Shown: positions 183 through 56,101 of the stretch, in pieces
How positions within the stretch are numbered: the stretch's first letter is position 1
Layout: every line of letters begins with the position of its first letter
DNA from: a virus
IMG/VR virus record: IMGVR_UViG_3300042939_000506
Coordinates: 1-61,237 of that record
Length of the DNA: 61,237 nucleotides
Strand: one strand, 5' to 3'
Notes under the pieces: generated by a model
The model's input: the letters and a program-made list of their open reading frames with translations, nothing else
Told to the model about the DNA's origin: nothing
Databases searched by the model: none
Translations under genes and position numbers: made by a program

Positions 183-237
183 TTCATATTTCAGCCGCCA
201 TCCCTTAGGATGGTTACAGGCAGGGAACAAGCCCGCC
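183..237 (+). promoter_or_regulatory. Early promoter with leader hairpin (copy 1)
   Basis: A -10 TAGGAT at 206-211 and a weak -35 TTCATA at 183-188 are separated by 17 bases. Seven bases after the -10 comes the leader hairpin GGCAGGG/CCCGCC (219-237), shared with the promoters at 14.1, 36.5 and 56.0 kb. It should drive the left plus-strand operon from 263. Its spacer is the least conserved of the family. Confidence 0.55.
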
Positions 238-262
238 CATACCCGGAAGGACCCGATCACCA

Positions 263-604
263 GTGGGAAAAATCGACTTCACCGATAACGTGAAGAACCT
301 GCGCGGACAGGACTTCATCGACCAAGTACGCACCATCGCCCTGCTCTCCGCAGGGTCCTACGGCGTGATGACCTGCGGTGCCTGCCGCAAAGAACCGGCC
401 AAGTGGATCGGGATGCAAGCCTGCGGAGCACCCGGCGGCCCGTTCTGCCACACCTGCGTCGACCACCAACGCGACTGGATGAACACCGCCGAAGCCATCG
501 CCGAAGCACAGCCCTACTGCCGCCACTGCGACGAAGACGTGGACCGCAGCCACATCTACGTCGTGGACCTGTATTCACGCATCAACGACAGGATCACGCT
601 GTGA
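263..604 (+). CDS. Hypothetical cysteine-rich protein
   Basis: A 113-residue protein from a GTG start with a GGAAGGA ribosome binding site about eleven bases upstream. Cysteine/histidine clusters (CGAC, then CHTC, then CRHC) suggest one or two zinc-binding knuckles. It is the first gene after the leader-hairpin promoter and overlaps the next gene by a GTGA junction, so the two are translationally coupled. No known family is recognised; an early-expressed regulator or takeover protein is possible but unproven. Confidence 0.7.
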   Translation: MGKIDFTDNVKNLRGQDFIDQVRTIALLSAGSYGVMTCGACRKEPAKWIGMQACGAPGGPFCHTCVDHQRDWMNTAEAIAEAQPYCRHCDEDVDRSHIYVVDLYSRINDRITL

Positions 605-1461
605 CCCTCAAGAAGATCGACTACATGGAGAACGCCCGATACTGGGGGCTGTCGGCGGTCGGCCAGGAACTGCGCCTGGTCAACAAACCGGTCAGCTACA
701 CCACCAACCTCCCGGCCCGGCAGCGCGACCAGATCAAAGCGTGCTCCGTGCTGGGTCTGACCTACTGGTCCGACCATCCCGGCAAGAGTTGCGTGTGGGC
801 CACCGACTTCCACCGCCGCTGGCATGTGGTCAAGATCGACTACAAGAACCGTGTAGCCGAGCACTACTGCGGCAAAGGGGACGCGCTGGGCTACAAGCAC
901 GGCTCCGACAAGTGCAGCCACACCGGAACCCGCAAGCAGTTCCTGGCCTGCGAAAGCCTGCAGATCGCGGCCATGGAACTGGCGTGCCCCTCCGTCGAAG
1001 ACCACGACCAGTACGCCGAACTGTCCCGTATCTGGCATTCCACGCCGACGTTTTTCGACGGCAAGGACTGGGAACCGCCGCCGGCGAAGTACACCGCCGC
1101 TGAGAAACGGCTCATCAAAGAGCGCAACGAGACCAAGGCCGCTCAGCGTGACGCCGAGATTGACGCCTTGATCGAGGCCAAGACAGCGGAGTACCGATCC
1201 CAGTCTCCCGAGCAGATAGTGCGGCCACCGCGCAAGAAGAAGGTGGTCCGGGCCGTCCTCCGCAAGTCCTCGCTGGGCGAGGTGGTCCCACCGCGCATGA
1301 CCTTGGAGGCCGCTATCGCCATCATCAACTTTGACCCGGAGTTTCTGCAGGACGTTCCCAGTGAGCGGCTTGTCGAGGCACTAGGCGCAACACCCCATGA
1401 CGAGAAGATCAAAGCCGAACTGGCTGCCCGAGGACTGACCCCCGCCAAGGAGGCATCGTGA
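601..1461 (+). CDS. Hypothetical protein, 286 aa
   Basis: The GTG start at 601 overlaps the stop of the preceding gene (GTGA). The open frame extends further upstream, but the beginning of that extension is an arginine-rich shadow translation. The N-terminal half is globular with scattered Cys/His (around CSHTGT). The middle is a charged helical segment rich in E, K and R, and the C-terminus has a basic patch (PRKKK). No family is recognised. Its place directly ahead of DNA polymerase suggests a replication-associated role by context only. Confidence 0.75.
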   Translation: MTLKKIDYMENARYWGLSAVGQELRLVNKPVSYTTNLPARQRDQIKACSVLGLTYWSDHPGKSCVWATDFHRRWHVVKIDYKNRVAEHYCGKGDALGYKHGSDKCSHTGTRKQFLACESLQIAAMELACPSVEDHDQYAELSRIWHSTPTFFDGKDWEPPPAKYTAAEKRLIKERNETKAAQRDAEIDALIEAKTAEYRSQSPEQIVRPPRKKKVVRAVLRKSSLGEVVPPRMTLEAAIAIINFDPEFLQDVPSERLVEALGATPHDEKIKAELAARGLTPAKEAS

Positions 1462-1652
1462 ATCCCATCCAACCGCCCATGACCAACAGGGAGATCGCCC
1501 TGGACTTCGCCATGCGCCTGGCGATCACCGTCGGAGAGTCCAACGGCGCGGCAGTGGTCAAGAACGCCGAGGCGTTCCTGGCCTTCCTCGACGCTGTGCC
1601 AGCCCCCACCGTGCAAGCACGGCCCCTGTCGTTTGTGGGAGCAGTCGAATGA
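1458..1652 (+). CDS. Small hypothetical protein, 64 aa
   Basis: A short mainly helical protein starting at GTG within the GTGA overlap with the previous stop. Its own end overlaps the next start by four bases (ATGA). The unbroken chain of coupled genes is the main support that it is real. No motif is recognised. Confidence 0.6.
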   Translation: MNPIQPPMTNREIALDFAMRLAITVGESNGAAVVKNAEAFLAFLDAVPAPTVQARPLSFVGAVE

Positions 1653-1846
1653 TGCCGAATCAGAGCCCCGACTACATGCGCGGATCATCAGATGCTCTCG
1701 CGGGGATGGCCAACGGTATTTCGGTGCTGCTGAAAAGAGACACCGTTCCCGACTGCTGCCGGAAATACTTGGAAGCTCTGCGTGCCGCAGCCTCAACCGC
1801 ATCCTCGATCAGCGAAGTGGAGGCGATCTGTGCCGAGGGTTCCTGA
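1649..1846 (+). CDS. Small hypothetical protein, 65 aa
   Basis: Starts with tandem ATG codons overlapping the previous stop. The product is small and helical with a CC pair near residue 36. Its 3' end overlaps the polymerase start by 17 bases, and the polymerase ribosome binding site lies inside it. Function unknown. Confidence 0.55.
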   Translation: MMPNQSPDYMRGSSDALAGMANGISVLLKRDTVPDCCRKYLEALRAAASTASSISEVEAICAEGS

Positions 1847-3638
1847 CCGATCCTGGTACGACCCTGTTCTCGACGCCACGCTGCACACCGGAGACAACGC
1901 TGTCTCCAAGGTCAACGACCTTTACTGCAGCCGTCCACGCCGCATAGCCATCGACATCGAGACACCAGGACTGGATCGCAGCTTCGTCATCAACTGTGTC
2001 ACTGCGGCCTGGATCGAGGGCCCCGGAGTTCAGGTGGTGCTGCTGGACCCGGCACGCGACGGTCTGCACCACAACAAGGTGCGCGACATCATGGAACGGG
2101 CAGCGTCGGTGGTGCTGCACAACGCACCCTTCGACATTCCGGCTCTCTACCACCACAACCTCATCACGGCTGCCGAGATCAACCGGGTGACCGACACGTT
2201 GCTGCTGGCACGCATGGCCTGGCCCAACCCGTATGACACAGAGACCGGAAAGCGGGACCTGACCTCGCTGGCCACCCGGCTGCTGGGCATGGAGGACTTC
2301 GACAAAGGCATGACGCTGGCGTTCAAGGCGGCAGGCTTCAAGACCAAGCAGGCCGGGTACGAGGGCATGGACATCGACTCCCCCATCTACCGGCGGGGAG
2401 CCATGGCCGACACCGTGGCCACTCTGCGGCTGGAACCCATCGTCAGGCAGTACGCCAGACAACGGCTCACCGACCATGGCCTGCCCTCCGGGGCGCACAG
2501 CGACCATGAGGCCGACCAGATCATCGCGGTGCAGGAAACGGTCAACCGGGTGATGCTGCGGCGCACCGCACGCGGCATCAACGTCGACTCCGACTACCTG
2601 ACCCGTTACGCCGAACAGGTGGACAGTGATCGCACCAAAGCGCGGGAAACCCTGTCGGCGGCTGGCCTGGACGGCGGTGTCGGTAAATCCGCGGCCCTGG
2701 TCGGCTACCTGGACTCCATCGGGGAACTGCCGCCGAACTGGAAACGCACCGAGACAGGCAAGCTCGCTGCCACCAAGGAACTGCTCACCGGACTGGATCA
2801 TCCGCTGGCCGACGCTCAGCGTCGGCTGGCTGAAACCGACAAGGTGCTGGGCTACCTCGACAAGGTGTACCGGCAATCTCTGGTGACCGGAAGATGCCAC
2901 CCACAGATCGGTGTGCTGGGAGCGAGTCAGACCGGGCGCATGTCCTGCTCTGCACCGGAACTACAGCAGTTTCCGAAGGAAGCGCGGCCCATCCTGATCG
3001 CTGACCATGAACTCGGTCTGTCCAGTATCGACTGGTCCCAGATCGAGCCGGTGACGATGGGGCTGCTGGCACGCGACGAGAAGTTCCTGGCCGACTACGA
3101 AGCCGGTGAGGATCTGTACGGCCCGATCCAGACCGCTGCCGGCATTGACCGGACGCTGGCCAAGGTGGTGCTGCTGGCCACGATGTACGGCCAGGGAATC
3201 ACCGGGCTGGCCAAACGTATCGGCAAGCATGAGAACGACGCCGCCCAGATCCGCCGCCAGATGCTCGACGCGATGCCTGAGTGCAAACGCTGGATGGCCA
3301 ACGTGCAGGCATACGCCGAGCAGTTCGGTGTGGTGATGACAGCGGCAGGACGGGTGCTGCCGGTGGATTCCGGTGGGGCTTTCCGCGCTGTCAACTACGT
3401 CGTGCAGGGCAGCGCCTATGACGTGCTGGCGCACAGCATCTGCGAGGCAGAACGGCAAGGGTTGGGTGACCACATCGTGCTGGCGATGCACGACGAACTG
3501 GTGGTGGACACGGTGGTGGCCGAGGAGGTGCAGCGGATCATGACCACACCGCCGCCCTGGCTGGCCGAATGGGCTGGGCGCACCCCGACACTCAGAACAG
3601 ACCGCGAGGATATGGGACCGACATGGCTAAAGGTGTGA
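1830..3638 (+). CDS. DNA polymerase I, family A (3'-5' exonuclease + polymerase)
   Basis: A 602-residue replicative polymerase, about the size of the mycobacteriophage L5-type enzymes and lacking the 5'-nuclease domain of bacterial Pol I. The proofreading site is visible as DIE at residues 42-44, with the second motif HNAPFD. Polymerase motif A is IDWSQIEP (about 398-406), motif B ends KVVLLATMYG (about 445-455), and motif C is MHDELVVD (about 553-560). The start chosen is GTG 1830, because GGAGG lies seven bases upstream; the longer open frame has no ribosome binding site. It is expected to copy the phage genome together with the PrimPol-helicase downstream. Confidence 0.95.
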   Translation: MPRVPDRSWYDPVLDATLHTGDNAVSKVNDLYCSRPRRIAIDIETPGLDRSFVINCVTAAWIEGPGVQVVLLDPARDGLHHNKVRDIMERAASVVLHNAPFDIPALYHHNLITAAEINRVTDTLLLARMAWPNPYDTETGKRDLTSLATRLLGMEDFDKGMTLAFKAAGFKTKQAGYEGMDIDSPIYRRGAMADTVATLRLEPIVRQYARQRLTDHGLPSGAHSDHEADQIIAVQETVNRVMLRRTARGINVDSDYLTRYAEQVDSDRTKARETLSAAGLDGGVGKSAALVGYLDSIGELPPNWKRTETGKLAATKELLTGLDHPLADAQRRLAETDKVLGYLDKVYRQSLVTGRCHPQIGVLGASQTGRMSCSAPELQQFPKEARPILIADHELGLSSIDWSQIEPVTMGLLARDEKFLADYEAGEDLYGPIQTAAGIDRTLAKVVLLATMYGQGITGLAKRIGKHENDAAQIRRQMLDAMPECKRWMANVQAYAEQFGVVMTAAGRVLPVDSGGAFRAVNYVVQGSAYDVLAHSICEAERQGLGDHIVLAMHDELVVDTVVAEEVQRIMTTPPPWLAEWAGRTPTLRTDREDMGPTWLKV

Positions 3639-4039
3639 GGCGTGTGCTGGTGACCGGAAGCCGGTCATGGGCAGACAAAGACGTTCTCTGGGACGCGCTG
3701 GATCAACAGCGCGAGCAATACGGGCTGATTGTGGTGGTTCACGGAGGATGCCCCACCGGAGCTGACTGGTTGGCGTGGAAATGGTGCCATGCCCGCGGTG
3801 TGGCCTGCGAGGTCCACACAGCGGATTGGACAACACACGGCAAGGCTGCTGGCCCGCTCCGTAATCAACGGATGGTCGATCTTGGTGCTGACGTGTGCCT
3901 GGCGTTTCCCTTTGGCGAGAGCAAAGGAACGCGGCACTGCATGAAAGCGGCGAAGAAAGCTGGTATTCCGATCAAGGATTACTCGTATCTGCTAGGCATA
4001 CCGATCCCGAATCTTGATGATGACGGAAACCCGCTGTGA
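3623..4039 (+). CDS. SLOG-fold (YspA/DUF2493-like) nucleotide-binding protein
   Basis: A 138-residue protein beginning at ATG 3623, inside the end of the polymerase gene. It opens with a strand and glycine-rich turn (RVLVTGSRSW), then VVHGGCPTGAD and a later GADVCLAFPFGES segment. This order is typical of the SLOG/Rossmann DUF2493 family related to DprA and YspA, which bind nucleotides or nucleotide-derived ligands. The biochemical role in phages is not established. It overlaps the next gene by GTGA. Confidence 0.75.
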   Translation: MAKGVRRVLVTGSRSWADKDVLWDALDQQREQYGLIVVVHGGCPTGADWLAWKWCHARGVACEVHTADWTTHGKAAGPLRNQRMVDLGADVCLAFPFGESKGTRHCMKAAKKAGIPIKDYSYLLGIPIPNLDDDGNPL

Positions 4040-4407
4040 CCGGTGTAGAGCGGTGGGTACCGGTACCGGTACCGGGCTACCAGATCAGCGACCACGGCAG
4101 AGTGTGGGTCAACGACCGGGTTGTGCACCGCGTCCACACCGGCCCATACCCTGCCCGTGGCAAACTGCTGGCACCACGGAGGGGAAACCAGTACGGGCAT
4201 CTGTGCGTCACCCTCTACAGAGGACCGCTCAAGCAGAAGTGCTACGTCCACCAACTGGTAGCCGAGGCGTTCATCCCCAAGATTGACGGCAAAACGATGG
4301 TGCTGCACGGCCCCCGAGGGGTCACCTGCAACCACGTTGACAACCTGCGGTGGGGCAACGCCTCCGACAACGAACTGGACAAGCGACGCTGGGCGGGCAA
4401 GCCGTGA
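4036..4407 (+). CDS. HNH endonuclease with NUMOD4-like N-terminus
   Basis: A 123-residue protein. The N-terminus has the NUMOD4 look (W..VPGYQISDHGRVW) and is followed by an HNH core: HQLVAEAFIP, CNHVDNLRWG, then ASDNELDKRR. This is the usual architecture of free-standing homing-type HNH nucleases in phages. It is coupled to the SLOG gene by a GTGA overlap and is the last gene before a 285-base gap. No flanking intron or inserted target gene is evident. Confidence 0.8.
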   Translation: MTGVERWVPVPVPGYQISDHGRVWVNDRVVHRVHTGPYPARGKLLAPRRGNQYGHLCVTLYRGPLKQKCYVHQLVAEAFIPKIDGKTMVLHGPRGVTCNHVDNLRWGNASDNELDKRRWAGKP

Positions 4408-4692
4408 CACGCCCGAACCACACACCGATTTCAGGATCGGTGATGATGATCTAGCCACAAAATCGTGGTCGGAAAACAACGTCTGACCACTACATATTGT
4501 GGTGCCGTCTAATGCGTACAGCTTTGTGCTGATACGTCCACACGATCATGTCGGTGCCCGCTGATTAAATGTGCCCACGCACTCAGAGGCGACTCTGAGA
4601 GCAGACCGGCTCCACCCCCGCAGTGCTTCCCCCGGCACTGAGGAGCCGACGACAACCGAACATCATCCCCCGAACGAAAGAGCATTCCCCCG
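4408..4692 (+). promoter_or_regulatory. Structured leader upstream of PrimPol-helicase
   Basis: A gene-free gap with two clear hairpins. The first is CTCAGAG-GCGA-CTCTGAG (4582-4599, seven base pairs with a GNRA-type loop). The second is CAGTGC/GCACTG with an eight-base loop (4621-4640). A further weak inverted repeat ACCAC/GTGGT surrounds a TATTGT box near 4490, which resembles the -10 of the other early promoters. No poly-T follows the hairpins, so they look more like leader elements than a terminator. What they sense or bind is unknown. Confidence 0.5.
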
Positions 4693-7116
4693 ATGCTTGG
4701 CTCAACGCCTATTTCTGCCATTCTCGGCAGCGGTGTCAACAACACCGATCACGCCGCTGTGCGTTCCTTCATCAAGACGGCCTGCGGAGCAGGTCTGTCG
4801 CTGCTGCTGATCTGCCCCGGCAGCAAAATCCCCTTTGACGGTAGAACCGCTAAACAGCGGGTTGCCGATGATCTTGCTGCCCAGGAGGCGGCAAAGCAGG
4901 CTGGACGCCGGGACTGGACCCGCGTCAAGTCTGCATCCGGGCTGGCTTTGGCCAGCCCGGATGCCAAGACGGTGCTCAAGTACCTCGACACCTACATCGC
5001 CAGATTCGGTGAGGACTGCGCGGTCAACCTGGGCGTGGAGGTCGGCGGGTCACGGCTGATCGTGGTGGACTGCGACACCGAGGCCCAACGGCGAGGATTC
5101 CTGCACGCCGCCGAAGCACCGGATGAGTTGCCGCCCACTGTGATCTCTCCCGGCACGCAGGACGCTGACGGCACCTGGATTCACACTCCCGGCAACGGCC
5201 ACTACTGGTTCACGCTGCCCGAGGGTGTGGACCTGCCCGAATCGGTGGGCGCGATGACCTGGGGCGGTGAGGACGGGTTCGCGGTCCTGTGGAACCGCCG
5301 CTACGTCCTGATCCCGCCGTCCACCCGCAAGGAGGGTGCCTACGAACTGCTGGGGCAGGACTACCCGGCCCCGCCGTGGCTGATCGAGGCGATCAACAAG
5401 CACTGCGCCGCCAAATCGGCACGCATGGAAGCCAACCGGACCAAGGACGAGGACCTTGCCGGGGTGATCGACACCTGGGCTGAAACGATCAGCTGGGCCG
5501 ACATTCTGGAACCGCTGGGATGGACCGCCGTACCCAGGCCGGACAACTGCGGCTGCGAGGTGTGGACCGCTCCCGGCGATCATGCCTCGCTCAAGAGCGC
5601 TACAGCCCACGACTCCGGGTGCTCGCTGGGCCGGTACACCGAAACCAACGCTCCGCTGCACATCTGGACCGACCACGACATCGAGCCCTTTGACGGCTAC
5701 GTCGACACCCACGAGTCCAAAACGCTGTCCAAACTGCAGGCGATTGCCTGGGCTTCCTACGGCGGCAGTGTCGGCCAGGCGATGGATGAACTGAATCTCG
5801 GTACCTCCCCGGTGTCGGAGATTGCTGCTGAGGACGGCCTGTCGATCTCCAATCTGCGGGAGGAGCTACCGTCCCTCCCGGCTACGCCCACCCAGCCGAC
5901 AGCAGATCAGCCCACCTCGCCGTTCGACACCGACGACGACGTGGAACCTCGCGTGTTCGACAGTGGTATTCCCGGTGTCCCTGTCATCGCCCCGTTCTCC
6001 CATTGGGCTGACATGCCGCCACCGGAGTTCTGCGTGGAGGGTCTGATTGAGCGTGGTGGCCTGACTGCGCTGATCGGTCCTCCTGGCGTGGGCAAGTCCA
6101 GTGTCGCGCTGGATCTGGCGTGCCACCTGGCGACCGGCAAGCCGTGGCAGGGCCGCAAGGTCATCAAGACGAAAGTGCTTTACATGCCCGGCGAGGGTCA
6201 GGCCGGCGCGGTGGCGCGTGTTCACGCCTGGTGCCACGAACACGGTGTGTCGTTGTCGGAGATTGACGAGAACCTGCTGATCGGTCTGCCGATCATCTTC
6301 ATCAGCGCGGCTGCCGAGAAGTGGGCGTTGGTGATGAACCAGATCAGCCACGAGGGTGTCGGGCTGGTCATCTTCGACACCTTCGCCCGGATGGCTGCCG
6401 AGATCGACGAGAACTCGTCCAGCCACGTCGGCATGGCGGTGCGACGGTTCGACAAGTTGCGCGAGGAAACCAACTGCGGCGTGCTGGTGGTGCATCACAC
6501 CGCCAAGCACAACCCGATGGCGGCTCGTGGGTCCAGTGCGCTGATGGGTGCTCTCTACACCGAGCTTGTTGTCGGTGAGGCGACGTGGACCTTCGACGAA
6601 CTTGGGTTGACCGGTGCCGGGGGCCGGGTGCCCTCGGGCAAGCCGATTCAGTTGAAAGTGACGAAGCAAAAGAACGCGGAGCAGGAGGAGCATCCGATTC
6701 CGTTGTTGATGCGGAACTGCGAGTCCTGGCGTGCCCCGTACATCACCGGGCCTACCGGCAGAACTGATCCCGGTCTGGGAGAGATCGTCATGGCGGCTCC
6801 GGTGGAGGAGCCGACAGTGGAGACCGCGGTGCGTATTGCAGAGTTCTCGGAGCAGTTCCCGGAGCAGGGCATCACCCGTTCTGAGGCGGTGATCGGTGTG
6901 CGGGCCGATTCCTTCACCGCCACTCGCAAGGATGCGTCCAAGGCATGGAAGCAGAAAGTGTCGTTGTCGGTGGATCTGGCCTTGCGGCTGGGTCTGCTGC
7001 AGACGGTCAACGGGTTGCGTACCGGGACGCGGTATGAGCGCGGCCCGGTTGACCCTCAGGCGGCGCGGATGGCTCATGCCACGGCGGTGATGACAGACGG
7101 GATGGACCCGCAGTGA
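4693..7116 (+). CDS. PrimPol primase-helicase (RepA/DnaB-like ATPase)
   Basis: An 807-residue fusion. The first 250 residues resemble bifunctional primase-polymerases: VNLGVEVGGSRLIVVDCDTE, then HYWFTLP and YVLIPPSTRKEG. The second half is a RecA-fold ATPase with Walker A GPPGVGKSS (462-470), Walker B VIFDTF (about 559-564) and a VVHHTAKH segment, as in RepA-type hexameric helicases. The predicted role is priming and unwinding at the phage replication fork, with the family A polymerase. The ATG 4693 start follows a GAAAGAG site in the structured leader. Confidence 0.88.
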   Translation: MLGSTPISAILGSGVNNTDHAAVRSFIKTACGAGLSLLLICPGSKIPFDGRTAKQRVADDLAAQEAAKQAGRRDWTRVKSASGLALASPDAKTVLKYLDTYIARFGEDCAVNLGVEVGGSRLIVVDCDTEAQRRGFLHAAEAPDELPPTVISPGTQDADGTWIHTPGNGHYWFTLPEGVDLPESVGAMTWGGEDGFAVLWNRRYVLIPPSTRKEGAYELLGQDYPAPPWLIEAINKHCAAKSARMEANRTKDEDLAGVIDTWAETISWADILEPLGWTAVPRPDNCGCEVWTAPGDHASLKSATAHDSGCSLGRYTETNAPLHIWTDHDIEPFDGYVDTHESKTLSKLQAIAWASYGGSVGQAMDELNLGTSPVSEIAAEDGLSISNLREELPSLPATPTQPTADQPTSPFDTDDDVEPRVFDSGIPGVPVIAPFSHWADMPPPEFCVEGLIERGGLTALIGPPGVGKSSVALDLACHLATGKPWQGRKVIKTKVLYMPGEGQAGAVARVHAWCHEHGVSLSEIDENLLIGLPIIFISAAAEKWALVMNQISHEGVGLVIFDTFARMAAEIDENSSSHVGMAVRRFDKLREETNCGVLVVHHTAKHNPMAARGSSALMGALYTELVVGEATWTFDELGLTGAGGRVPSGKPIQLKVTKQKNAEQEEHPIPLLMRNCESWRAPYITGPTGRTDPGLGEIVMAAPVEEPTVETAVRIAEFSEQFPEQGITRSEAVIGVRADSFTATRKDASKAWKQKVSLSVDLALRLGLLQTVNGLRTGTRYERGPVDPQAARMAHATAVMTDGMDPQ

Positions 7117-7218: not shown

Positions 7219-7270
7219 TAGACAATGCCTACCGTGCTCTGTATTGTGAGAGGGTAGGCAGCAGCCTATC
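7219..7270 (+). promoter_or_regulatory. Early promoter with leader hairpin (copy 2)
   Basis: A -35 TAGACA (7219-7224) and a -10 TATTGT (7242-7247) with a 17-base spacer that contains the family motif ATGCCTAC and ends in CTG. Downstream is a variant leader hairpin GGTAGG/CCTATC (7253-7270). It should drive the helicase-exonuclease segment starting at 7318. Confidence 0.7.
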
Positions 7271-14093: not shown

Positions 14094-14149
14094 TTGAAAA
14101 TGCCTCCGTGTGCCTGTATTGTGTGAGGAGAGGCAGGGATCAGCCCGCC
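14094..14149 (+). promoter_or_regulatory. Early promoter with leader hairpin (copy 3)
   Basis: A -35 TTGAAA (14094-14099), a 17-base spacer with the family motif ATGCCTCC and CTG, a -10 TATTGT (14117-14122), and the leader hairpin GGCAGGG/CCCGCC at 14132-14149. It drives the plus-strand genes from 14172. Confidence 0.75.
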
Positions 14150-14171
14150 TCACGTTGGAAGGAACCGACAC

Positions 14172-14579
14172 ATGGCAAGGCCGCAAACAACCCGAGACAT
14201 CGAAATCAAAGATGTCGACTTCGGCGTCATCTACTTCGGGCAGATCGCCACCATGCCGGCGCTGCTCAAGGGATACAGCGTCTTTCTGGAAGCCGTGGAG
14301 AAATCCGGGGCCAGAGTGGAGCAGCGTTACGACGGTGCCCACTTCTACCGGCACCCCACTCAAGCGGAAATGCAGGACCAGCTTCGCGCAGCCCAGGACC
14401 GCTGGGACGAGGGGCAGAAGTATTACGAGACCATCGCCGCGGTAGGGGAAACCGAATACCCCTACCAGTTCAACCAGGCGAAATCCTGGGCCGAACAGGA
14501 GGGTCTGCAGTTCCCGCCTGACCACGACCCCATCACGGCCATCGACGTGGTGATTCGTGACGAGGAGGCTCAGCGATGA
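14172..14579 (+). CDS. Hypothetical protein, 135 aa
   Basis: An acidic, mixed alpha/beta protein rich in aromatic residues, with a GGAAGGAA ribosome binding site ten bases before the ATG. It is the first gene downstream of the 14.1 kb early promoter and overlaps the next gene by ATGA. No family recognised. Confidence 0.7.
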   Translation: MARPQTTRDIEIKDVDFGVIYFGQIATMPALLKGYSVFLEAVEKSGARVEQRYDGAHFYRHPTQAEMQDQLRAAQDRWDEGQKYYETIAAVGETEYPYQFNQAKSWAEQEGLQFPPDHDPITAIDVVIRDEEAQR

Positions 14580-15121
14580 GCAGCCCCTTCGTCCCTCAGA
14601 CCGAACCATCCATCAGTGACCGGCAGATCAGCTTCCTCACTGACCTGACCCGCAAGTACATGCAGCTCAACGGCCACAGCGCAGAGGAAATCGAGGACGC
14701 GCTGACCGCCACAGGGAACCGCCACATCGCCGGTCTGACCAAAACCGCTGCCAGCGAAGCCATCGACAAGAAACTCGATCAGATCAAGAAAATGGAAAAC
14801 GAACTGGTCGAGGAAGAACAGTCCGTCGACAATCGCATTGACGGGTTCTGGGAACTGGCTGACGGCAGAATCGTCAAGGTTCAGTACGCGGTGCACGGGT
14901 CAGGCCGCGCCTACGGAAAGCTTCTCAATACCGTCAGCGGCGGGTTCGATTACGCCCCCGGTATCGTCAGCGAGGTGCGACGGGATGGTACCCGGCTGAC
15001 TTTGGACCGGGCCAAAGAACTCGGCCACCTCTACGGAATGTGCATCCGCTGCGGGGCCACTCTGACTGACGAGGCCAGCATCGAGGCAGGTATCGGGCCG
15101 GTGTGCGCCACTAAGTTTTAA
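14576..15121 (+). CDS. DUF6011-like zinc-ribbon protein
   Basis: A 181-residue protein. The N-terminal half is helical and charged, with a coiled-coil-like DKKLDQIKKMENELVEEEQS. The C-terminus carries CIRCGATLTDEASIEAGIGP followed by a final Cys, the signature of the DUF6011 family found in actinophages. The cysteines probably bind one zinc. The molecular function of the family is not known. Confidence 0.75.
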   Translation: MSSPFVPQTEPSISDRQISFLTDLTRKYMQLNGHSAEEIEDALTATGNRHIAGLTKTAASEAIDKKLDQIKKMENELVEEEQSVDNRIDGFWELADGRIVKVQYAVHGSGRAYGKLLNTVSGGFDYAPGIVSEVRRDGTRLTLDRAKELGHLYGMCIRCGATLTDEASIEAGIGPVCATKF

Positions 15122-15192: not shown

Positions 15193-15564
15193 ATGTCGAA
15201 ACAACCGAGCGACTACGCGCAAGGATGGGGCGAGTTGATTCGCGCCCACCGCGTTTATATCGGGATCAGCCAACGGACGTTGGCCGGGAAGCTGCAGATG
15301 AGCGAACGCAGCCTCTCCGACATCGAAGTGGGCCGGCGAGCCTGCCCACCGGGTTTCCTCAACGCTGTTCAAGAAGTCGCTCAGCAGTTCTACGGTGACG
15401 TGAAGAAAGTCACCGACGCCGCAGACGATGATCTGGTCGCCAGCAGCGGAGGGTGGTTTGAGTTGCCGGTCAGTGCCGACCCGAAACAGGAGTGGACTCG
15501 GGCGGTGGTGGCACGCGCAGCTGTCGAGAACGGCAACATCATGCCGGTGCTAATCGCCACTTAA
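15193..15564 (+). CDS. XRE-family HTH regulator (Cro/repressor-like)
   Basis: A 123-residue protein whose first half is a Cro/C1-type helix-turn-helix. Residues 25-50 read ISQRTLAGKLQMSERSLSDI followed by EVGRR, the classic XRE recognition region. The C-terminal part is short, without an autocleavage domain. An AGGAGA site precedes the ATG. It lies just before an excisionase-like gene, so it may regulate lysis-lysogeny or excision. Whether it is the immunity repressor cannot be told from sequence. Confidence 0.8.
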   Translation: MSKQPSDYAQGWGELIRAHRVYIGISQRTLAGKLQMSERSLSDIEVGRRACPPGFLNAVQEVAQQFYGDVKKVTDAADDDLVASSGGWFELPVSADPKQEWTRAVVARAAVENGNIMPVLIAT

Positions 15565-15579
15565 ACACCACCCTTGATC

Positions 15580-15600
15580 GGTATTCTGCTAGTCGATACC
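15580..15600 (+). promoter_or_regulatory. Inverted repeat GGTAT/ATACC before excisionase-like gene
   Basis: GGTAT (15580-15584) and ATACC (15596-15600) flank TCTGCTAGTCG, with a possible -10 TATTCT inside. A second short inverted repeat AGTCG/CGACT overlaps it. It is a candidate operator between the XRE gene and the small HTH gene. Confidence 0.4.
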
Positions 15601-15620: not shown

Positions 15621-15836
15621 ATGCCCGACACCTCGGACAAGAAACGCAAGATAGCGCGGTATTTGTCCCGATCAGAGGTAGCCGAATACCTGGGGCTGGC
15701 CGGGGTCAAGTCGCTGTCGAGGGTGGAGCTTCCACCCCACGACGCGGAAATCGGCATCTACAAGGGGTGGCTTCCCGCCACCATTGACCGGTGGAACGCC
15801 ACCAGGCCGGGTCGTGGCCGGTGGGGTGCTCGTTAA
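15621..15836 (+). CDS. Excisionase / AlpA-like HTH protein
   Basis: A 71-residue basic protein with a winged-helix DNA-binding layout: SRSEVAEYLGLAGVKSLSRV, an acidic loop, and GWLPATIDRWNATRPGRG. This is characteristic of small excisionase or DNA-binding-domain proteins of actinophages. GCAGGAGA gives a strong ribosome binding site. It is about 27 kb from the integrase but follows the XRE regulator, so it may direct excision or act as a Cro-like regulator. Confidence 0.75.
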   Translation: MPDTSDKKRKIARYLSRSEVAEYLGLAGVKSLSRVELPPHDAEIGIYKGWLPATIDRWNATRPGRGRWGAR

Positions 15837-36489: not shown

Positions 36490-36545
36490 TTGACTACCCC
36501 TCCGGGGGTCTGTATTCTCATAGGTGAGGCAGGGATACACCCGCC
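36490..36545 (+). promoter_or_regulatory. Early promoter with leader hairpin (copy 4)
   Basis: A -35 TTGACT (36490-36495), a 17-base spacer with ACCCCTCC and CTG, a -10 TATTCT (36513-36518), and the leader hairpin GGCAGGG/CCCGCC (36528-36545). It is the best sigma-A-like member and drives the four-gene plus-strand module inside the structural operon. Confidence 0.8.
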
Positions 36546-50930: not shown

Positions 50931-50937
50931 AAGACAC

Positions 50938-50943: not shown

Positions 50944-50970
50944 GGGATACACCGTGCCAAACCGGGAGTT

Positions 50971-50999
50971 GATAAAATACCTCCACAAGACTGCATTAT
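50971..50999 (+). promoter_or_regulatory. Early-type promoter of HNH operon (copy without hairpin)
   Basis: Matches the early promoter family: GATAAA or overlapping TTGATA as -35, spacer motif ATACCTCC ending CTG, and -10 CATTAT (50994-50999). The leader hairpin is absent because ATG 51011 follows within 12 bases. Confidence 0.6.
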
Positions 51000-51010
51000 G
51001 AAAGGGCACG

Positions 51011-51463: not shown

Positions 51464-51671
51464 CCTACGCACCCGTATCGCCGCCATCCTTTCTTCCAAA
51501 GAGGTTGTCCTCGACGGTGACTACATCAACCGGGAGTGCGCTTGGCTACTGGCCGACGCGGTGATCCAAGAACTAGGGCTGCAAACACACCTGGCGAAAC
51601 GCATCATCAACGGAAAGCCGGATCAACGTGTGCGCCGCCATGTGACGGATTGGGAGATTGTCAATGAGTGA
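51456..51671 (+). CDS. Small hypothetical protein, 71 aa (tandem paralogue A)
   Basis: MTDLRTRIAAIL start, ADAVIQELGL middle and VTDWE end are shared with the gene that follows, so the two are tandem duplicates. Likely a small helical protein; function unknown. ATG overlaps the HNH stop. Confidence 0.65.
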   Translation: MTDLRTRIAAILSSKEVVLDGDYINRECAWLLADAVIQELGLQTHLAKRIINGKPDQRVRRHVTDWEIVNE

Positions 51672-51846
51672 CCTCCGTGAGCGGATCGCCGCCGCTGTTG
51701 TGGAGAAGCTGTCCAAACGGCGGGATGGGCGCGTGGAGTTCTCGCCTTATGACGTGGCCGACGCGGTGATCGCGGAACTGGGTTTACGCCAAGAAACCGT
51801 TGGCCTCATCCACCGCTGGGTCACCGACTGGAAGGCCGACGAATGA
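51664..51846 (+). CDS. Small hypothetical protein, 60 aa (tandem paralogue B)
   Basis: Has MSDLRERIAA, ADAVIAELGL and WVTDWKADE in the same order as its upstream neighbour. ATG 51664 lies just inside the previous gene and its end overlaps the next start by ATGA. Confidence 0.65.
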   Translation: MSDLRERIAAAVVEKLSKRRDGRVEFSPYDVADAVIAELGLRQETVGLIHRWVTDWKADE

Positions 51847-52490
51847 CCGCGCAACTGGAACTGTTCACTCCCGCCCAACTCACACCCGCAGGCCCGGCCT
51901 ACGAACGCGAACGGTACTGGGGTATCGCCATTTGCCACCCCGGCGGCTGGGGACGAGACACCGACGAACCCACCGACACCTGCCGCCCCACCCTCCTGTC
52001 ACTGGACATGCGCTGCAACTGCTGGAACCGCCGCGGCGAAGAACGCTGCCAGTGCGTCGGCTACTACCTGTTTCGGGGTTCCTGCCGGGGGTGCAGCTGG
52101 TACGGCCCCGCCCGCACCAGCGAAGACGCCGCCGTCTACGACACCCACGACCACTGCTACCCCGGCTGGCGAGAACTGCCCGTCATCATCGGCCCCATCC
52201 CCGAAACCGGCAGCGGCAAAAAAGGCACAAGCATCGACTCCTTCATCGCCCGGCTGGAATCCATCGGCTACCCGCCAGGATGGATACAGGCCGGTGGACC
52301 CATCCGCGAACGCCGACAACAAGGCGGCACCCGCGCCCACACCGTCCACACCGGATACGGCAACTACACCATCTGCGGAGAAGTGGTCGGCTGCTGCCTG
52401 AGCATCGGCATGAACAGCTGCGAAGGACTGGACCGCTGCCTCACCGGCAGATGCACGCCCTACGAGTTCCCCGATCAGGAAATCGAGTAG
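51843..52490 (+). CDS. Hypothetical cysteine-rich protein, 215 aa
   Basis: Contains at least ten cysteines (RCNCWNRRGEERCQC; GSCRGCSWYG; a C-terminal CLTGRC), suggesting two or three zinc sites. The pattern W-(G/N)-x-C with aromatic residues is found in other actinophage early proteins of unknown function. Coupled to the preceding gene by ATGA. Convergent with the GNAT gene, overlapping it by 16 bases. Confidence 0.65.
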   Translation: MTAQLELFTPAQLTPAGPAYERERYWGIAICHPGGWGRDTDEPTDTCRPTLLSLDMRCNCWNRRGEERCQCVGYYLFRGSCRGCSWYGPARTSEDAAVYDTHDHCYPGWRELPVIIGPIPETGSGKKGTSIDSFIARLESIGYPPGWIQAGGPIRERRQQGGTRAHTVHTGYGNYTICGEVVGCCLSIGMNSCEGLDRCLTGRCTPYEFPDQEIE

Positions 52491-52858
52491 ACCAGCCGCG
52501 AAGCACCATGCTGCGTCGGACCCCGGTCCTCAAACCCGGCCCGTAACGCCCAGCGTTTGTCCCACGACAGAATCTCCACTTCCTTGAACCGGGCACTGAC
52601 CGCGTACTGCAGGCACGCCTGAGACACCTCGTCCCCCAACCCCATTCCGCGGAAATCCGGCCTCACCCAGACAGCCCGAATCCGGGCCTTCGTCGAACTC
52701 ACCGGAGCCACCCCCGCAAAACCGGTGATCCGGCCCTTGGAGTTGACCGTCTTGAACCACACGCAATCCTTCACCTGGGTCACGTTCACCCGCTCCTTCG
52801 CCGCAAGAGCGGCGAAAGGAGCGATCTCCTTCCAGGTGGCCCTCTCCACCGCCATCAT
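52475..52858 (-). CDS. GNAT-family acetyltransferase
   Basis: A 127-residue protein with the GNAT acetyl-CoA-binding motif A (RAVWVRPDFRGMGLGDEVSQ; the R.G.GLG loop) and a C-terminal strand VEILSWDKRWALRAGF. The substrate is not predictable. It is the last gene of the ParB/PAPS-reductase operon, coupled by an ATGA overlap, so it may modify a partner or nucleotide used by that system. Confidence 0.8.
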   Translation of the reverse strand: MMAVERATWKEIAPFAALAAKERVNVTQVKDCVWFKTVNSKGRITGFAGVAPVSSTKARIRAVWVRPDFRGMGLGDEVSQACLQYAVSARFKEVEILSWDKRWALRAGFEDRGPTQHGASRLVYSIS

Positions 52859-53400
52859 TCCGCCTTCGGATACCAAGCTTGCGAATACGCCCACTTGTTG
52901 ATGCTGCGGGCACTGAACACGCCCTCCTGGGCGAGCAGATCCACTTCCTCCTTGGTGCCGCCGATCTCGGCGGCGATCACATCACGCGCCACACCGTGCT
53001 CTTCGATCAGCTCCCGCACAATTGCGCTCATCTCCACCGCGATATGCGACCCCTTGGCCCGGTTGATCCGAATCGTCATCAACATCGCCGTGGGCCGGTC
53101 CACATCTAGCACCGCCACCGGAACCCGGCCCTTCCAACGAGCCCGGATTCGATCACTGTCCTGACTCAACCGCCATCGGTGAAACCCGTCGATGATGAGC
53201 CGGTCGGGGTTGACCAGCAACGGCTGCAACCACCCGGTAGACAGCACGCTCCGCTCAAGCAACCGCAACTCTGCAGCGTGCACCCGGTTCGGATTCCAGG
53301 TGTTGGGGTCGAGGGTGTCTGCCGGCACCCATCGGATGTGGTCAACGGGATCTCCCTCCGCAGCATCCAAACGGGGCAACCCCGCCGCGTTCACCGTCAC
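52855..53400 (-). CDS. ParB-like protein, IbrB type
   Basis: A 181-residue protein with the ParB/Srx nucleotide-binding fold. It shows the LDPNTWNPN entry, SVLSTGWLQPLLVNP and the signature IIDGFHRWR (Asp71, His74, Arg75), then TIRINRAKGSH. Proteins of this type pair with PAPS-reductase-like IbrA in phages and enteric bacteria; the IbrA-type gene is immediately upstream and overlapping. It is unlikely to act in plasmid partition, since there is no ParA. Confidence 0.82.
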   Translation of the reverse strand: MTVNAAGLPRLDAAEGDPVDHIRWVPADTLDPNTWNPNRVHAAELRLLERSVLSTGWLQPLLVNPDRLIIDGFHRWRLSQDSDRIRARWKGRVPVAVLDVDRPTAMLMTIRINRAKGSHIAVEMSAIVRELIEEHGVARDVIAAEIGGTKEEVDLLAQEGVFSARSINKWAYSQAWYPKAE

Positions 53401-54491
53401 GACGCCTTCTCCTTACGGGCCTGCTGCTGAGCAACACTGAGCGCGGTGATTGCTCGCTTATAAGCACCCGCCATGAACTGACCCAACACGTAATCCGGCG
53501 GGTACGAGTCGGGGGTTTCCACCGCCTTGGACCGCACATGACCCAACTCTTTGAGAGCCTTGGCACGCTGCACCTCGTCGTCGATGGTGTCCTCCACCCA
53601 CGCCTGCACCCCGTCATAGGACTGCCCGTACCGGGCGAACATGCCCGCCCGGTCCAGTTCGTGGTAGTACCGCTCCTGCACCGCCATTTCGGGGAACAAC
53701 TGCAGCAACTGGTCGTAGAACACCGGGGCGTAAGCCCTGGTGTTACCCAGCCGTTTAGCCCGCTCCGCGTGCAGCGGGGTCGACACCCGCAACGGCTCCT
53801 TGCTCAGCAGCTGCGAGTCATAGATCGGGCAGTAGCGGATGTCCCGGTCATAGAAGTACCGGAACACATCGTTCTCCTGCCAGTCGAAAATCGGCTTGGC
53901 GGTCATCACCCGCTTCTCGGCGGTGGTGTTGATGTAGTTCTCCGTCAGCTTCGCGGTCATCGCCCGAAACCGCATCAGCGACTCCGCGGCCCGGACCCCC
54001 GTCACGATGGCGACCTTGCCCTTCTCGTCACGGGCAGCCAGAGTGTCCATCGTGTACTGATCCAGCACCAGACGCCGATCCAAACACAGCTTCTCGGAGG
54101 TCAACGCGAAATCGGGGATCGGGCGCAGATGAGGTCGATCCGGGTCCCACTGGATATAGCGGGTCGAGGTCCCCAGAATGTACTTCGTCGATTCCAGCGG
54201 CACGCAGTACCACCGCATGTCGATCCAGTCCTTGCGGCGGTACTCGTCAACGAAATCCACCACCGCGTCCGGTATCAACTCCTCATCGCGGAACACCACC
54301 TTCACCGGGCGGCGGTCCCCCCGCTCCAACGCCACCTCACGCGCCAGATGCAACGTCACCAGCGAGTCCTTACCCCCGGAGAACGCCACCAGCACCGAAT
54401 CGAACACGTCGTAGATGTGGTGCATCCGCTTGACCGCCTCGGTCAGCACATCAGAGTCGATGAACCCCTTCACATGCTTGATCCGTTTCAC
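53397..54491 (-). CDS. PAPS-reductase-like PP-loop ATPase, IbrA type
   Basis: A 364-residue protein with the PP-loop AFSGGKDS (36-43), a central SEKLCLDRR and TGVRAAES, and a C-terminal DUF3440-like part (GQFMAGAYKR). PP-loop enzymes adenylate substrates, often in sulfur or nucleobase chemistry; DndC in DNA phosphorothioation belongs to this superfamily. IbrA/IbrB pairs are known as regulators of immunoglobulin-binding genes in E. coli, and their chemistry is unresolved. Starts at GTG 54491, overlapping a small gene by GTGA. Confidence 0.85.
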   Translation of the reverse strand: MKRIKHVKGFIDSDVLTEAVKRMHHIYDVFDSVLVAFSGGKDSLVTLHLAREVALERGDRRPVKVVFRDEELIPDAVVDFVDEYRRKDWIDMRWYCVPLESTKYILGTSTRYIQWDPDRPHLRPIPDFALTSEKLCLDRRLVLDQYTMDTLAARDEKGKVAIVTGVRAAESLMRFRAMTAKLTENYINTTAEKRVMTAKPIFDWQENDVFRYFYDRDIRYCPIYDSQLLSKEPLRVSTPLHAERAKRLGNTRAYAPVFYDQLLQLFPEMAVQERYYHELDRAGMFARYGQSYDGVQAWVEDTIDDEVQRAKALKELGHVRSKAVETPDSYPPDYVLGQFMAGAYKRAITALSVAQQQARKEKAS

Positions 54492-54643
54492 GGCAAACGG
54501 CCCTCATCGACCAGGTGCTGCACGATCCGGCAGGACAGCGCATAGGACTCAGCCGGCGTTCCGTAGGCGTGTTCAAGGAAATACATGTCGACCACGACCT
54601 GCACCGCCCGGATCGTGTCGAGCATGTCATCGACCCCGCCCAT
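54488..54643 (-). CDS. Small hypothetical protein in IbrA/ParB operon, 51 aa
   Basis: Begins MGGVDDMLDTIRAVQ and reads to LVDEGRLP. It is bounded by an ATGA overlap upstream and a GTGA overlap downstream, exactly filling the space between the ParB-like and PAPS-reductase-like genes. It is helical and amphipathic, possibly an adaptor. Easily missed because of its length. Confidence 0.7.
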   Translation of the reverse strand: MGGVDDMLDTIRAVQVVVDMYFLEHAYGTPAESYALSCRIVQHLVDEGRLP

Positions 54644-55302
54644 CACATCACCGACGCGATGTAGTCACACAGACGTTGCGGCATTGTGGAGTCGGGGTCC
54701 TTGCGCTTCAACCAGCCGATGAAGTCGGTCCACACCTTCTTCTGCTTCTCATCGTCGAACACGATGGAGTAGCTGATGATTGACTGGCCGCGGTTGTTGA
54801 TCGGTTCCTCGTCATCATCGTCACCGGACAAATCGTCAATGTCCACGGTCACCGGCTCAGGCACCGACAGCAGCGCATCCAGATCCTCGGCGGTGTAGCC
54901 CAAACCGGTCAGATCGTCGGACACGTCAGAAAGCAGCGAAGCCAACTCCTTGTTGTCGTAACGGCCCTTCTCAGCGGTGCGGTTATCAGCCAGGACGATG
55001 CGTGCCGCCTGGTCCTCATCCACATCGACCCAATGCACCAGGATCGCGTTCCACCGCTCATCCTCAGGGTGGCGTTGCGCCAGCTGACGGAACGCTTTCA
55101 ACGTGTGGTTACCCGCCAGAACCTCAAACCGCCGCCCGGTGTGCGTCCCGATATTGGCCACAATCGGGCGGTACTGGCCGTGAGCCTTGAGGCTCGCGGC
55201 CACCGCCCCCACATTCCCCCGGCGCGGGTTACGACCGTAAATCCGCAGCGCCGACGGTGCCACAGACGAGGTTGTTTCCGGTGTCACATCGGTGTCAGCC
55301 AT
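54643..55302 (-). CDS. ParB-like nuclease-domain protein (paralogue 2)
   Basis: A 219-residue protein whose first 130 residues are ParB/Srx-like: ALRIYGRNPRRGNVGAVAAS, then LAGNHTLKAFRQLA and VLADNRTAEKGRYDN. An acidic linker (DDLSGDDDDEE) leads to a C-terminal domain ending DPDSTMPQRLCDYIASVM. It is a close paralogue of the next gene, sharing GTHTGR, HWVDVD and FDDE. Expected to bind CTP or a related nucleotide, possibly with nuclease activity. Confidence 0.8.
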   Translation of the reverse strand: MADTDVTPETTSSVAPSALRIYGRNPRRGNVGAVAASLKAHGQYRPIVANIGTHTGRRFEVLAGNHTLKAFRQLAQRHPEDERWNAILVHWVDVDEDQAARIVLADNRTAEKGRYDNKELASLLSDVSDDLTGLGYTAEDLDALLSVPEPVTVDIDDLSGDDDDEEPINNRGQSIISYSIVFDDEKQKKVWTDFIGWLKRKDPDSTMPQRLCDYIASVM

Positions 55303-55979
55303 CAGACCCGGCTCCCCTCGGTCTCATTCAGGTGGGAAACCACCCGTTCGGCCAACGTCAAATCCGGGTCCGGGTACTGGTCCTTCAACCACTTCACAAA
55401 CGCGAACCACATCTCCTGCTGCGGCTCGTCGTCGAAGGTGATCGTGAAGCTGATCGCTGACTCCGACGCCGGCCCCAACACCGGAGGTTCCAACTCCGGG
55501 TCCTCCTCAGGAGGCTCGACATCCGGGGCGGCGGGACGGTCCAACGTCGCTTCCAGAGCATCCAGGTCAGCGTCGGAATACCCGGTGCCGGTGGTGCCGA
55601 CCTCACCCAGCAGCGCGACCAGAGTGTCGGTGTCGAACTCACCGGCATCGAAGCTGCGGTTGTCCACCAGCACGATGCGGGTGGCCATGTCGTCATCCAC
55701 ATCGACCCAATGCACCGCCACATGAGCCCACCGCTGATCGAACGGGTTCTGCTCAGCCAGGTCGCGGAACGCCTTCAGCGTGTGGTTTCCGGCCAGCACT
55801 TCATTCGGTCTGCCGGTGTGCGTCCCGATGTTGACTACCAGCGGCTTGAACTGGCCGTTGGCTTTCAGGGAACCGGCTATCGCATCGACATCCCCGATGC
55901 GGGCGTTGCGGTGAAACACCGACAGTTCTGATGGTTTGACGAGCGTCGTGGTGCCGACAAGCGGCGAGGTTGAGGCCAT
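55302..55979 (-). CDS. ParB-like nuclease-domain protein (paralogue 1)
   Basis: A 225-residue protein with the same domain order as its downstream neighbour: SELSVFHRNARIGDVDAIAG, LAGNHTLKAFRDLA, VLVDNRSFDAGEFDT, an acidic proline-rich linker, and a C-terminal FDDEPQQEMWFAFVKWLKDQ domain. It is first in the operon. ATG 55979 lacks a ribosome binding site but has TACCGT seven bases upstream. Confidence 0.8.
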   Translation of the reverse strand: MASTSPLVGTTTLVKPSELSVFHRNARIGDVDAIAGSLKANGQFKPLVVNIGTHTGRPNEVLAGNHTLKAFRDLAEQNPFDQRWAHVAVHWVDVDDDMATRIVLVDNRSFDAGEFDTDTLVALLGEVGTTGTGYSDADLDALEATLDRPAAPDVEPPEEDPELEPPVLGPASESAISFTITFDDEPQQEMWFAFVKWLKDQYPDPDLTLAERVVSHLNETEGSRV

Positions 55980-55986
55980 AACGCAG

Positions 55987-55992
55987 ACGGTA
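55987..55992 (-). promoter_or_regulatory. -10 box TACCGT of ParB/PAPS-reductase operon
   Basis: TACCGT ends seven bases before ATG 55979. It is divergent from the early promoter at 56045, so both sets of genes could be co-regulated from this interval. Confidence 0.5.
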
Positions 55993-56044
55993 GGAGGGGA
56001 CCGTGCAGGGCCATCAGGGACAAAGACACACCACAACGAAACCC

Positions 56045-56101
56045 TAGACAATACCTGCGGGAGTCTGTATTATCAACAGACCAGGCAGGGAAACACCCGC
56101 C
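56045..56101 (+). promoter_or_regulatory. Early promoter with leader hairpin (copy 5)
   Basis: A -35 TAGACA (56045-56050), a 17-base spacer with ATACCTGC and CTG, a -10 TATTAT (56068-56073), and the leader hairpin GGCAGGG/CCCGCC (56084-56101). It drives the six small genes 56120-58057. Confidence 0.8.

What the first reader, a model, noticed from the sequence alone, without database searches (positions are those of the whole stretch)
183..56101. Family of early promoters with a shared spacer motif and transcribed hairpin
At 183, 7219, 14094, 36490 and 56045 (and 50971 without the hairpin) a -35/-10 pair with a 17-base spacer is followed by a GGCAGGG...CCCGCC-type leader hairpin. In five of the six the spacer carries (A/G)CCTNC or CCCTCC and ends in CTG before the -10. 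Conservation inside the spacer and in the RNA leader suggests one regulator acting on all early operons, with a second layer at RNA level. All lie on the plus strand.
Basis: seen in the sequence. Interest (0 to 1): 0.75.

Follow-up and report, generated by a model that had tools for sequence, protein, structure and literature searches.

The report
Phage early promoter-operators with leader hairpin
This phage and its relatives reuse one kind of promoter at many genes, each carrying a DNA site that looks made for one phage-encoded switch protein and, usually, a small RNA hairpin at the start of the message; related arrangements are already known, so it is a variant rather than something wholly new.

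Summary
Five plus-strand sites (7219, 14094, 36490, 50971, 56045) share the spacer motif; a sixth is on the minus strand (34186-34158), so 'all plus' is wrong. 50971 is weak on its own. 183 has the hairpin but no spacer motif; 7219 has the motif but another leader.

The window is related to Gordonia phages (Evaa, Sour, CaiB) and cluster B mycobacteriophages. All 15 relatives I chose carry promoter-plus-hairpin sites of this kind. There the motif is usually one arm of a 21-22 bp dyad, lying in the spacer in one group and on the -10 in another, while the hairpin keeps its distance from the -10. The operator differs between phages of one host. An XRE (434-repressor-like) gene lies behind such a promoter in 16 of 16 genomes and is the best regulator candidate, but its covariation with the operator depends on how dyads are centred. 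The hairpin (mostly 5-nt loop beginning with A) shows compensatory changes.

Most likely: autoregulated XRE control of a promoter regulon plus a 5'-end RNA element. Binding, sign, timing and hairpin function are inferred. Closest known: cluster K ESAS/SAS and repeats reported in CaiB.

The parts
7219..7247 (+). promoter with operator (TAGACA-17-TATTGT), before the DNA helicase gene; no GGCAGGG hairpin
   Evidence: helicase ortholog
14094..14122 (+). promoter with operator (TTGAAA-17-TATTGT), before the operon holding the XRE gene
14130..14151 (+). transcribed hairpin GAGGC(A)GGG-ATCAG-CCCGCCTC; its GGC begins 9 nt after the -10
   Evidence: z -3.53
14172..15121 (+). first genes of the XRE operon: 14172-14579 (DUF7432) and 14576-15121 (Evaa gp40 counterpart)
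15193..15564 (+). XRE/434-repressor-like HTH protein, proposed operator-binding regulator
15559..15587 (+). weak operator-like site before the AlpA-like gene (score 11.6, about chance level)
15621..15836 (+). small conserved AlpA/excisionase-like HTH gene following XRE
   Evidence: no Pfam match
36490..36518 (+). promoter with operator (TTGACT-17-TATTCT), pointing against the surrounding structural genes
   Evidence: similar placement of Nigel gp17
36528..36545 (+). transcribed hairpin GGC(A)GGG-ATACA-CCCGCC
50971..50999 (+). promoter with operator (GATAAA-17-CATTAT), weak; near-leaderless gene 51011-51463, no hairpin
   Evidence: leave-one-out at chance level
56045..56073 (+). promoter with operator (TAGACA-17-TATTAT), before 56120-56629
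56084..56101 (+). transcribed hairpin GGC(A)GGG-AAACA-CCCGCC
183..211 (+). promoter-like TTCATA-17-TAGGAT without the operator motif; palindrome CCATCC-CTTA-GGATGG at 198-213
219..237 (+). transcribed hairpin GGC(A)GGG-AACAAG-CCCGCC

Best explanation
The sites form one phage regulon. Each is a SigA-like promoter overlapped by an operator for the phage's own XRE protein (15193-15564), whose operon is itself behind one of these promoters (14094). As XRE accumulates it binds as a dimer across the spacer and -10, blocks RNA polymerase, and turns down these operons together with its own synthesis (a Cro-like feedback switch). Separately, most of these transcripts begin with a small GC hairpin about 10 nt after the -10 (7-10 in the window, 7-16 in relatives), so within a few nt of the expected 5' end and just before the ribosome site. 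It most likely protects the 5' end of the message or sets up translation, independently of the operator. Shown: sites, conservation, two promoter registers, operator types that differ between phages, compensatory changes in the hairpin. Inferred: binding, repression rather than activation, timing, and what the hairpin does.
For: (1) Promoter-plus-hairpin sites in 15 of 15 relatives: 99 sites, plus 4 in the window. (2) In relatives the motif is usually a 21-22 bp dyad. Its centre lies 7-9 bp before the -10 in Evaa and seven of eight cluster B phages, but at +1 to +3 from the -10 start in five Gordonia phages (automatic search; Shatter -3, Tres no clear dyad). A site that moves by roughly one helical turn relative to the promoter is easier to explain as a repressor operator than as a promoter element or a geometry-bound activator site. 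(3) Hairpin-to--10 distance is median 10 in 40 sites of one group and 11 in 59 of the other. (4) Eight cluster B phages whose records name M. smegmatis as host carry at least three operator kinds with SigA-like boxes, so the reader of the site should be phage-encoded. (5) Such a promoter with hairpin precedes the XRE operon in 16 of 16 genomes; the operator profile scores above shuffles there in 14 of 15 relatives (those sites were in its training set). (6) XRE matches 434 repressor structures (E 5e-4) and a designed binder (4e-8), and HTH_31 in 16 of 16. (7) With hand-set dyad centres, operator distance follows the XRE recognition helix best: r 0.56, partial on DNA polymerase 0.32, p 0.002. 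(8) Hairpin: 107 of 136 promoter-strand sites versus 1 of 38 reverse reads and 801 of 8000 random pieces; stem pair 2 Watson-Crick in 96 of 105 against 75.7 after shuffling, with GC, CG and TA types.
Against: In the window alone the dyad is poor: best symmetry 0.44, at the 95% point of the null; 50971 is at chance level on its own. The XRE covariation is fragile: with the automatically found dyad centres the partial r drops to 0.13, p 0.19, still the highest of the candidates (AlpA-like whole 0.12), and with hand-set centres the whole AlpA-like protein also gives 0.20, p 0.02, while whole XRE gives 0.04. Imvubu has the RRD helix of the TTACCCG group but an AATACCG operator. The minus-strand operator and 36490 lie in the structural region. 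The profile used was trained on hairpin-bearing sites, so the hairpin fraction is inflated. No expression or binding data were available. No integrase is annotated in the five relatives whose full gene tables I saw, so a lysogenic role for XRE is not expected there.
Confidence: 0.5

Rival explanations
1. Another phage DNA-binding protein (the AlpA-like gene after XRE, the ribbon-helix-helix protein, or the 58214-type HTH/HNH protein) is the operator-binding regulator.
For: AlpA-like gene follows XRE in the same operon; its whole-protein distance has partial r 0.20, p 0.02 with hand-set centres. RHH and HTH63 proteins were located in all 15 relatives (Puhltonio HTH63 corrected).
Against: The AlpA-like HTH segment hardly varies although operators do (partial r -0.02); RHH -0.02 and HTH63 0.05. 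The 58214 family was not tested.
Confidence: 0.25
2. The regulator is an activator acting on the spacer (MerR-like geometry) and switches the promoters on.
For: In Evaa and most cluster B phages the dyad is centred in the -35/-10 spacer, and the window's best centre is the same as Evaa's; some -35 boxes are poor.
Against: In five Gordonia phages the dyad is centred at the -10, which such activators should not tolerate; the operon candidate is 434-like. MerR domains were not searched for across the genomes.
Confidence: 0.12
3. No regulator: the copies are simply recently duplicated promoter cassettes.
For: Copies within a genome resemble each other most (by eye).
Against: Half-sites and stem are kept while the bases between them differ; compensatory stem changes; operator and hairpin also occur apart.
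Confidence: 0.06
4. The hairpin is a boxB-like antitermination site or a binding site of another phage RNA-binding protein, rather than a plain 5' stabiliser.
For: Loop is 5 nt in 99 of 103 sites (only loops of 4-6 were searched) and begins with A in 100 of 103. Copies in a genome tend to change together: three of four Sour copies are ATCGGG...CCCGAT and the fourth TTCGGG...CCCGAT; all four window copies have a bulged A.
Against: Three-nt loops also occur (Puhltonio); the loop does not begin with G as a GNRNA-type boxB would (recalled); it lies next to the ribosome site; no N-like protein was looked for; in NHagos only one of seven copies has the bulged A.
Confidence: 0.2

Closest known systems
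Cluster K mycobacteriophage ESAS/SAS (Pope et al. 2011, PMC3203893; Adephagia, PMC11373665)
   Same: Repeated SigA-like promoters containing an imperfect inverted repeat whose sequence differs between subclusters, followed by a conserved leader element next to start codons of non-structural genes (section 15, part 1 of 2; passages; looked at in Anaya).
   Different: SAS is a 13-mer GGGATAGGAGCCC containing the ribosome site, not a 5-6 bp stem with a 5-nt loop before a separate ribosome site; inverted repeat longer; no enrichment of SAS in the window.
Repeated intergenic regions of Gordonia phage CaiB, cluster DR (Welsh et al. 2022, PMC9302106)
   Same: The reported blocks GCGGGA, ACCCGCTC, GAGAGGAC and TGTTGT upstream of genes 42, 71, 77, 80, 81, 85 correspond, on my reading, to the two hairpin arms, the ribosome site and the right end of the operator (main text and references to 17 read).
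   Different: The paper gives the conserved blocks and says they may regulate; it names no promoter, dyad, hairpin, regulator or other phage group.
Phage 434 repressor/Cro and their operators
   Same: XRE proteins match 434 repressor structures; dyad operators overlap promoters including that of the regulator's own operon.
   Different: Many dispersed sites instead of two clustered operator regions (recalled); window protein shows only an HTH domain in Pfam; binding untested.
Cluster A mycobacteriophage stoperators (recalled; mentioned in PMC3203893)
   Same: Many dispersed sites for one phage regulator (recalled).

Membership tests
Cluster K ESAS/SAS | SigA-like -35/-10 with an inverted repeat, repeated at many gene starts | tested here: inconclusive
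   met in most relatives; in the window itself the symmetry is borderline
Cluster K ESAS/SAS | 13-bp SAS GGGATAGGAGCCC 3-9 bp before start codons | tested here: not met
   10 matches, all with 3 mismatches, 20.2 expected
434-repressor-like XRE regulators | HTH_3/HTH_31-type helix-turn-helix | tested here: met
   PF13560 above cut-off for the window protein; 16 of 16 members match it at E up to 0.01; PDB 434 repressor E 5e-4
434-repressor-like XRE regulators | Specific binding to dyad operators and repression | not testable with these tools
   only covariation, sensitive to dyad centring
Lambda boxB/nut antitermination site | Small hairpin with pentaloop of GNRNA type (recalled) | tested here: not met
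   loop 5 nt in 99 of 103 but first base A in 100 of 103
Lambda boxB/nut antitermination site | Cognate N-like arginine-rich protein (recalled) | not tested
   not searched
Cluster A stoperators | Asymmetric 13-bp site, many copies (recalled) | tested here: not met
   (pattern recalled)

The most novel reading that the evidence does not exclude
A two-level regulon in which both levels have evolved as matched specificities: a phage XRE protein with its operators, and a phage RNA-binding factor with its 5-nt-loop leader hairpins, so that the copies of each element in a genome change together and related phages infecting the same host are blind to each other's control signals. The bulged A shared by all four window hairpins would be one such specificity change.
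Probability: 0.15. Interest if true: 0.75.

Novelty: new variant of a known kind. Interest (0 to 1): 0.55.

Why it matters
483 phage records match the XRE protein, 453 of them Mycobacterium phages, and in my literature searches I found no description of how the cluster B group controls early transcription. A candidate regulator, proposed operators in 16 genomes and a set of natural variants (operator sequence, promoter register, hairpin) make this testable in laboratory strains, and give annotators a way to place likely transcription starts.

Tried and rejected
Searches for close relatives in viral contigs with the XRE and DUF7432 proteins found none. A pattern scan for -10 plus GGCAGGGA found 68 stretches; of these only L058 has the full motif, and it is 100% identical to window 48621-57074, so it adds nothing. 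Distant blastn with 14080-14172 gave two unrelated hits. No Rfam family reached its gathering score; no tRNA. 183 rejected as a spacer-motif member.

Corrections on checking. In some searches the window's plus-strand -10 was set one base off; and one search use the right one. In some searches the HTH63 row for Puhltonio was the wrong gene; one search uses the right one (partial r 0.05 instead of -0.14). I had read Yago84 47386 and LittleMunchkin 16921 as lacking an operator; and one search show a dyad there in the spacer register, so the '183-type' exception holds for cluster B phages only.

Rows dropped before the operator statistics: Yago84 47386, LittleMunchkin 16921 and 4334 (operator in the other register, by eye), Puhltonio 17419 and Saguaro 16584 (no operator), Saguaro 23649 (-10 doubtful). 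With no rows dropped the XRE helix partial r is 0.34. Dyad centres for CaiB, Yago84, LittleMunchkin, Shatter and Tres were set by hand after one search gave other values.

Literature: ten search calls, nine ran. Seen: part 1 of section 15 and passages of PMC3203893; passages of PMC12699233, PMC11373665, PMC9753669, PMC12821328; part 1 of 2 of PMC9302106 (the main text and references to 17); the rest as listings. The ZoeJ paper (Dedrick et al. 2019) was not read.
Full report
What the window is. It is a 61,237-base virus record. Thirty-eight of its open frames match Evaa proteins, in the same order, reversed and rotated. DNA similarity to Gordonia phages and cluster B mycobacteriophages is patchy (at most 8% of a 25 kb query covered in the listed hits).

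Checking the observation. Leave-one-out scores put five of these six sites above every hit in 20 shuffles; 50971 is at chance level by itself. 183 does not match (-7.8). The GGC(A)GGG-N5/6-CCCGCC hairpin follows 183, 14094, 36490 and 56045; all four stems carry the same bulged A, and folding is clearly better than shuffles for 14094 only. Promoter boxes by themselves were not enriched in bases 1-20000.

The family in relatives. A profile built from the window sites picks up Evaa promoters such as TTGACA-ACGCCTACCGGACTCGG-TATAGT at 57104, with a GGCGGG...CCCGCC leader. Promoter-plus-hairpin sites were then found in each of 15 relatives: Evaa, Yago84, Sour, CaiB, LittleMunchkin, NHagos, Shatter (Gordonia) and Nigel, Vincenzo, Puhltonio, Tres, Daisy, Reprobate, Saguaro, Imvubu (Bclasvirinae). 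For ten of these I had only the right part of the genome. One search lists 103 sites, 4 of them in the window. It required a 4-6 nt loop, a minimal promoter score and a ribosome-site/start pattern, so its loop-length count is conditional.

The spacer motif as half of a dyad. With the centres used the arms match at 0.81 of positions in Reprobate, 0.78 Nigel, 0.69 CaiB, 0.62 Evaa and Puhltonio, 0.49-0.59 in eight others, and only 0.37-0.38 in Tres and Shatter. In the window symmetry is weak: 0.44, the best of 16 centres and the same centre as Evaa, but only at the 95% point of the null. An automatic search places the centre 7-9 bp upstream of the -10 in Evaa and seven cluster B phages, at +1 (Sour), +1.5 (NHagos) and +3 (CaiB, Yago84, LittleMunchkin) from the -10 start, at -3 in Shatter, and nowhere sensible in Tres. 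In the six Gordonia phages other than Evaa the -35 begins TTGC in 29 of 40 sites (count over) and the -10 is TANNNT, which the scan required. LittleMunchkin appears to have both registers (by eye). The distance from the -10 to the hairpin is median 10 (n=40) in that group and 11 (n=59) in the other; it reaches 13-16 in Nigel and Vincenzo. The hairpin thus keeps to the -10, while the operator does not.

Two exceptions. At the place matching 183 (upstream of the DNA polymerase operon), seven of eight cluster B phages have the hairpin with no operator-profile hit (Nigel, Puhltonio, Tres, Daisy, Reprobate, Vincenzo, Saguaro; none found in Imvubu). In Gordonia phages this does not hold: Evaa and CaiB have operator hits there and Yago84 and LittleMunchkin a dyad by eye. 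Before the DNA helicase, as at 7219, the operator profile hits in 9 of 15 relatives (Evaa and all eight cluster B phages) without the GGCGGGANNNACCCGCC leader; six Gordonia phages have no profile hit. Operator and hairpin can therefore occur apart.

Who reads the operator. Eight cluster B phages whose records name M. smegmatis carry at least three operator kinds (TTACCCG in five, AATACCG in Daisy and Imvubu, Tres different), so a host factor is unlikely. The gp40 - XRE - AlpA-like operon follows such a promoter with hairpin in 15 of 15 relatives and in the window; the operator profile, trained on sites that include these, hits in 14 of 15 (LittleMunchkin is in the other register). The XRE proteins match HTH_31 in 16 of 16 and 434 repressor in the PDB. 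The segment aligned to 434 TQQS is SERS in the window, AKRS in Evaa, xRRD in six cluster B phages, xLHS or xPHS in five Gordonia phages. Mantel tests over 15 genomes with hand-set dyad centres give for this helix r 0.56, partial on DNA polymerase 0.32 (p 0.002); XRE whole 0.04, XRE HTH 0.16 (p 0.06), AlpA-like whole 0.20 (p 0.02), AlpA-like HTH -0.02, HTH63 0.05, RHH -0.02; DNA polymerase alone r 0.54. With the window added the helix gives 0.34 (p 0.0006). With automatic centres the helix falls to 0.13 (p 0.19), still the highest. Imvubu has the RRD helix but not the TTACCCG operator. This is suggestive, not proof.

The hairpin. On promoter-strand profile hits, 107 of 136 have a stem of at least 5 pairs 6-17 nt after the -10, 94 of them with a 5-nt loop; reverse reads of the same operators give 1 of 38, random pieces 801 of 8000. 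The profile was trained on hairpin-bearing sites, so the first fraction is inflated; the window's bulged hairpins count as misses (0 of 7). With the 5' arm alone as anchor, 105 of the 136 were usable (7 window sites left out, 24 without the anchor). Stem pairs 1, 2 and 3 are Watson-Crick in 73, 96 and 91 of 105, above all 2000 shuffles; pair 2 shows GC 84, CG 7, TA 4, AT 1. Relatedness of sequences is not corrected for. The start codon is ATG in 96 of the 102 sites counted.

How it most likely works. XRE, made from its own operator-bearing promoter, binds the site and shuts these promoters in concert; that is inference from anatomy. The hairpin begins a few nt after the expected transcript start and ends just before the ribosome site, which fits protection of the 5' end or control of translation; that too is inference. 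Timing is not shown: 'early' rests on the genes being replication and other non-structural genes, and two window sites (36490, 34186-) lie inside the structural region.

What is known. The CaiB announcement lists conserved blocks upstream of six genes and suggests regulation (PMC9302106). Cluster K ESAS/SAS is the same kind of thing: SigA-like promoters with an inverted repeat plus a start-associated leader (PMC3203893 section 15 part 1; PMC11373665 passages; looked at in Anaya). Repeats upstream of ATG starts are also reported for cluster DJ (PMC9753669 passages). In some searches I found no paper that names this dyad, its regulator, the hairpin or the link between cluster B and the Gordonia phages; most subscription papers are not in that library.

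Noticed in passing
42740-44047 (+): Tyrosine integrase (PF00589, E 5.5e-18; E 2.5e-20) lying in reverse between the major capsid gene and the next structural gene. No integrase is annotated in Evaa, Yago84, Sour, CaiB or Nigel, so this phage may be temperate and the XRE regulator may have an immunity role here.
   Followed up: partly
198-213 (+): Perfect palindrome CCATCC-CTTA-GGATGG around the -10 of the 183 promoter, found once in the window; possibly a site for a second regulator.
   Followed up: partly
Nigel record 55486 (L081), L082 17419, L085 18117, L086 19079, L087 16584: Upstream of the polymerase operon cluster B phages share a hairpin promoter of another type, with GGTATAwC/GCTATAACC-like bases and often TAACCC before the stem (by eye).
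   Followed up: no
7254-7320 (+): Helicase leader contains tandem GACAGTGACAGC-like units; most relatives have a larger stem-loop and C/A-rich bases at this place (by eye).
   Followed up: no
50971-51020 (+): The start codon lies only about 12 nt after the -10, so the message may be nearly leaderless; Tres has an operator with a similarly short leader (L083, 16646).
   Followed up: no
L077 4788-5393; L081 9300-9884: Proteins annotated 'RNase E' in Sour, Nigel and others look by eye like short HTH proteins; the name is probably a mis-annotation.
   Followed up: no
54643-55302 and 55302-56051 (-): Two adjacent ParB-like genes, both closest to Evaa gp1.
   Followed up: no
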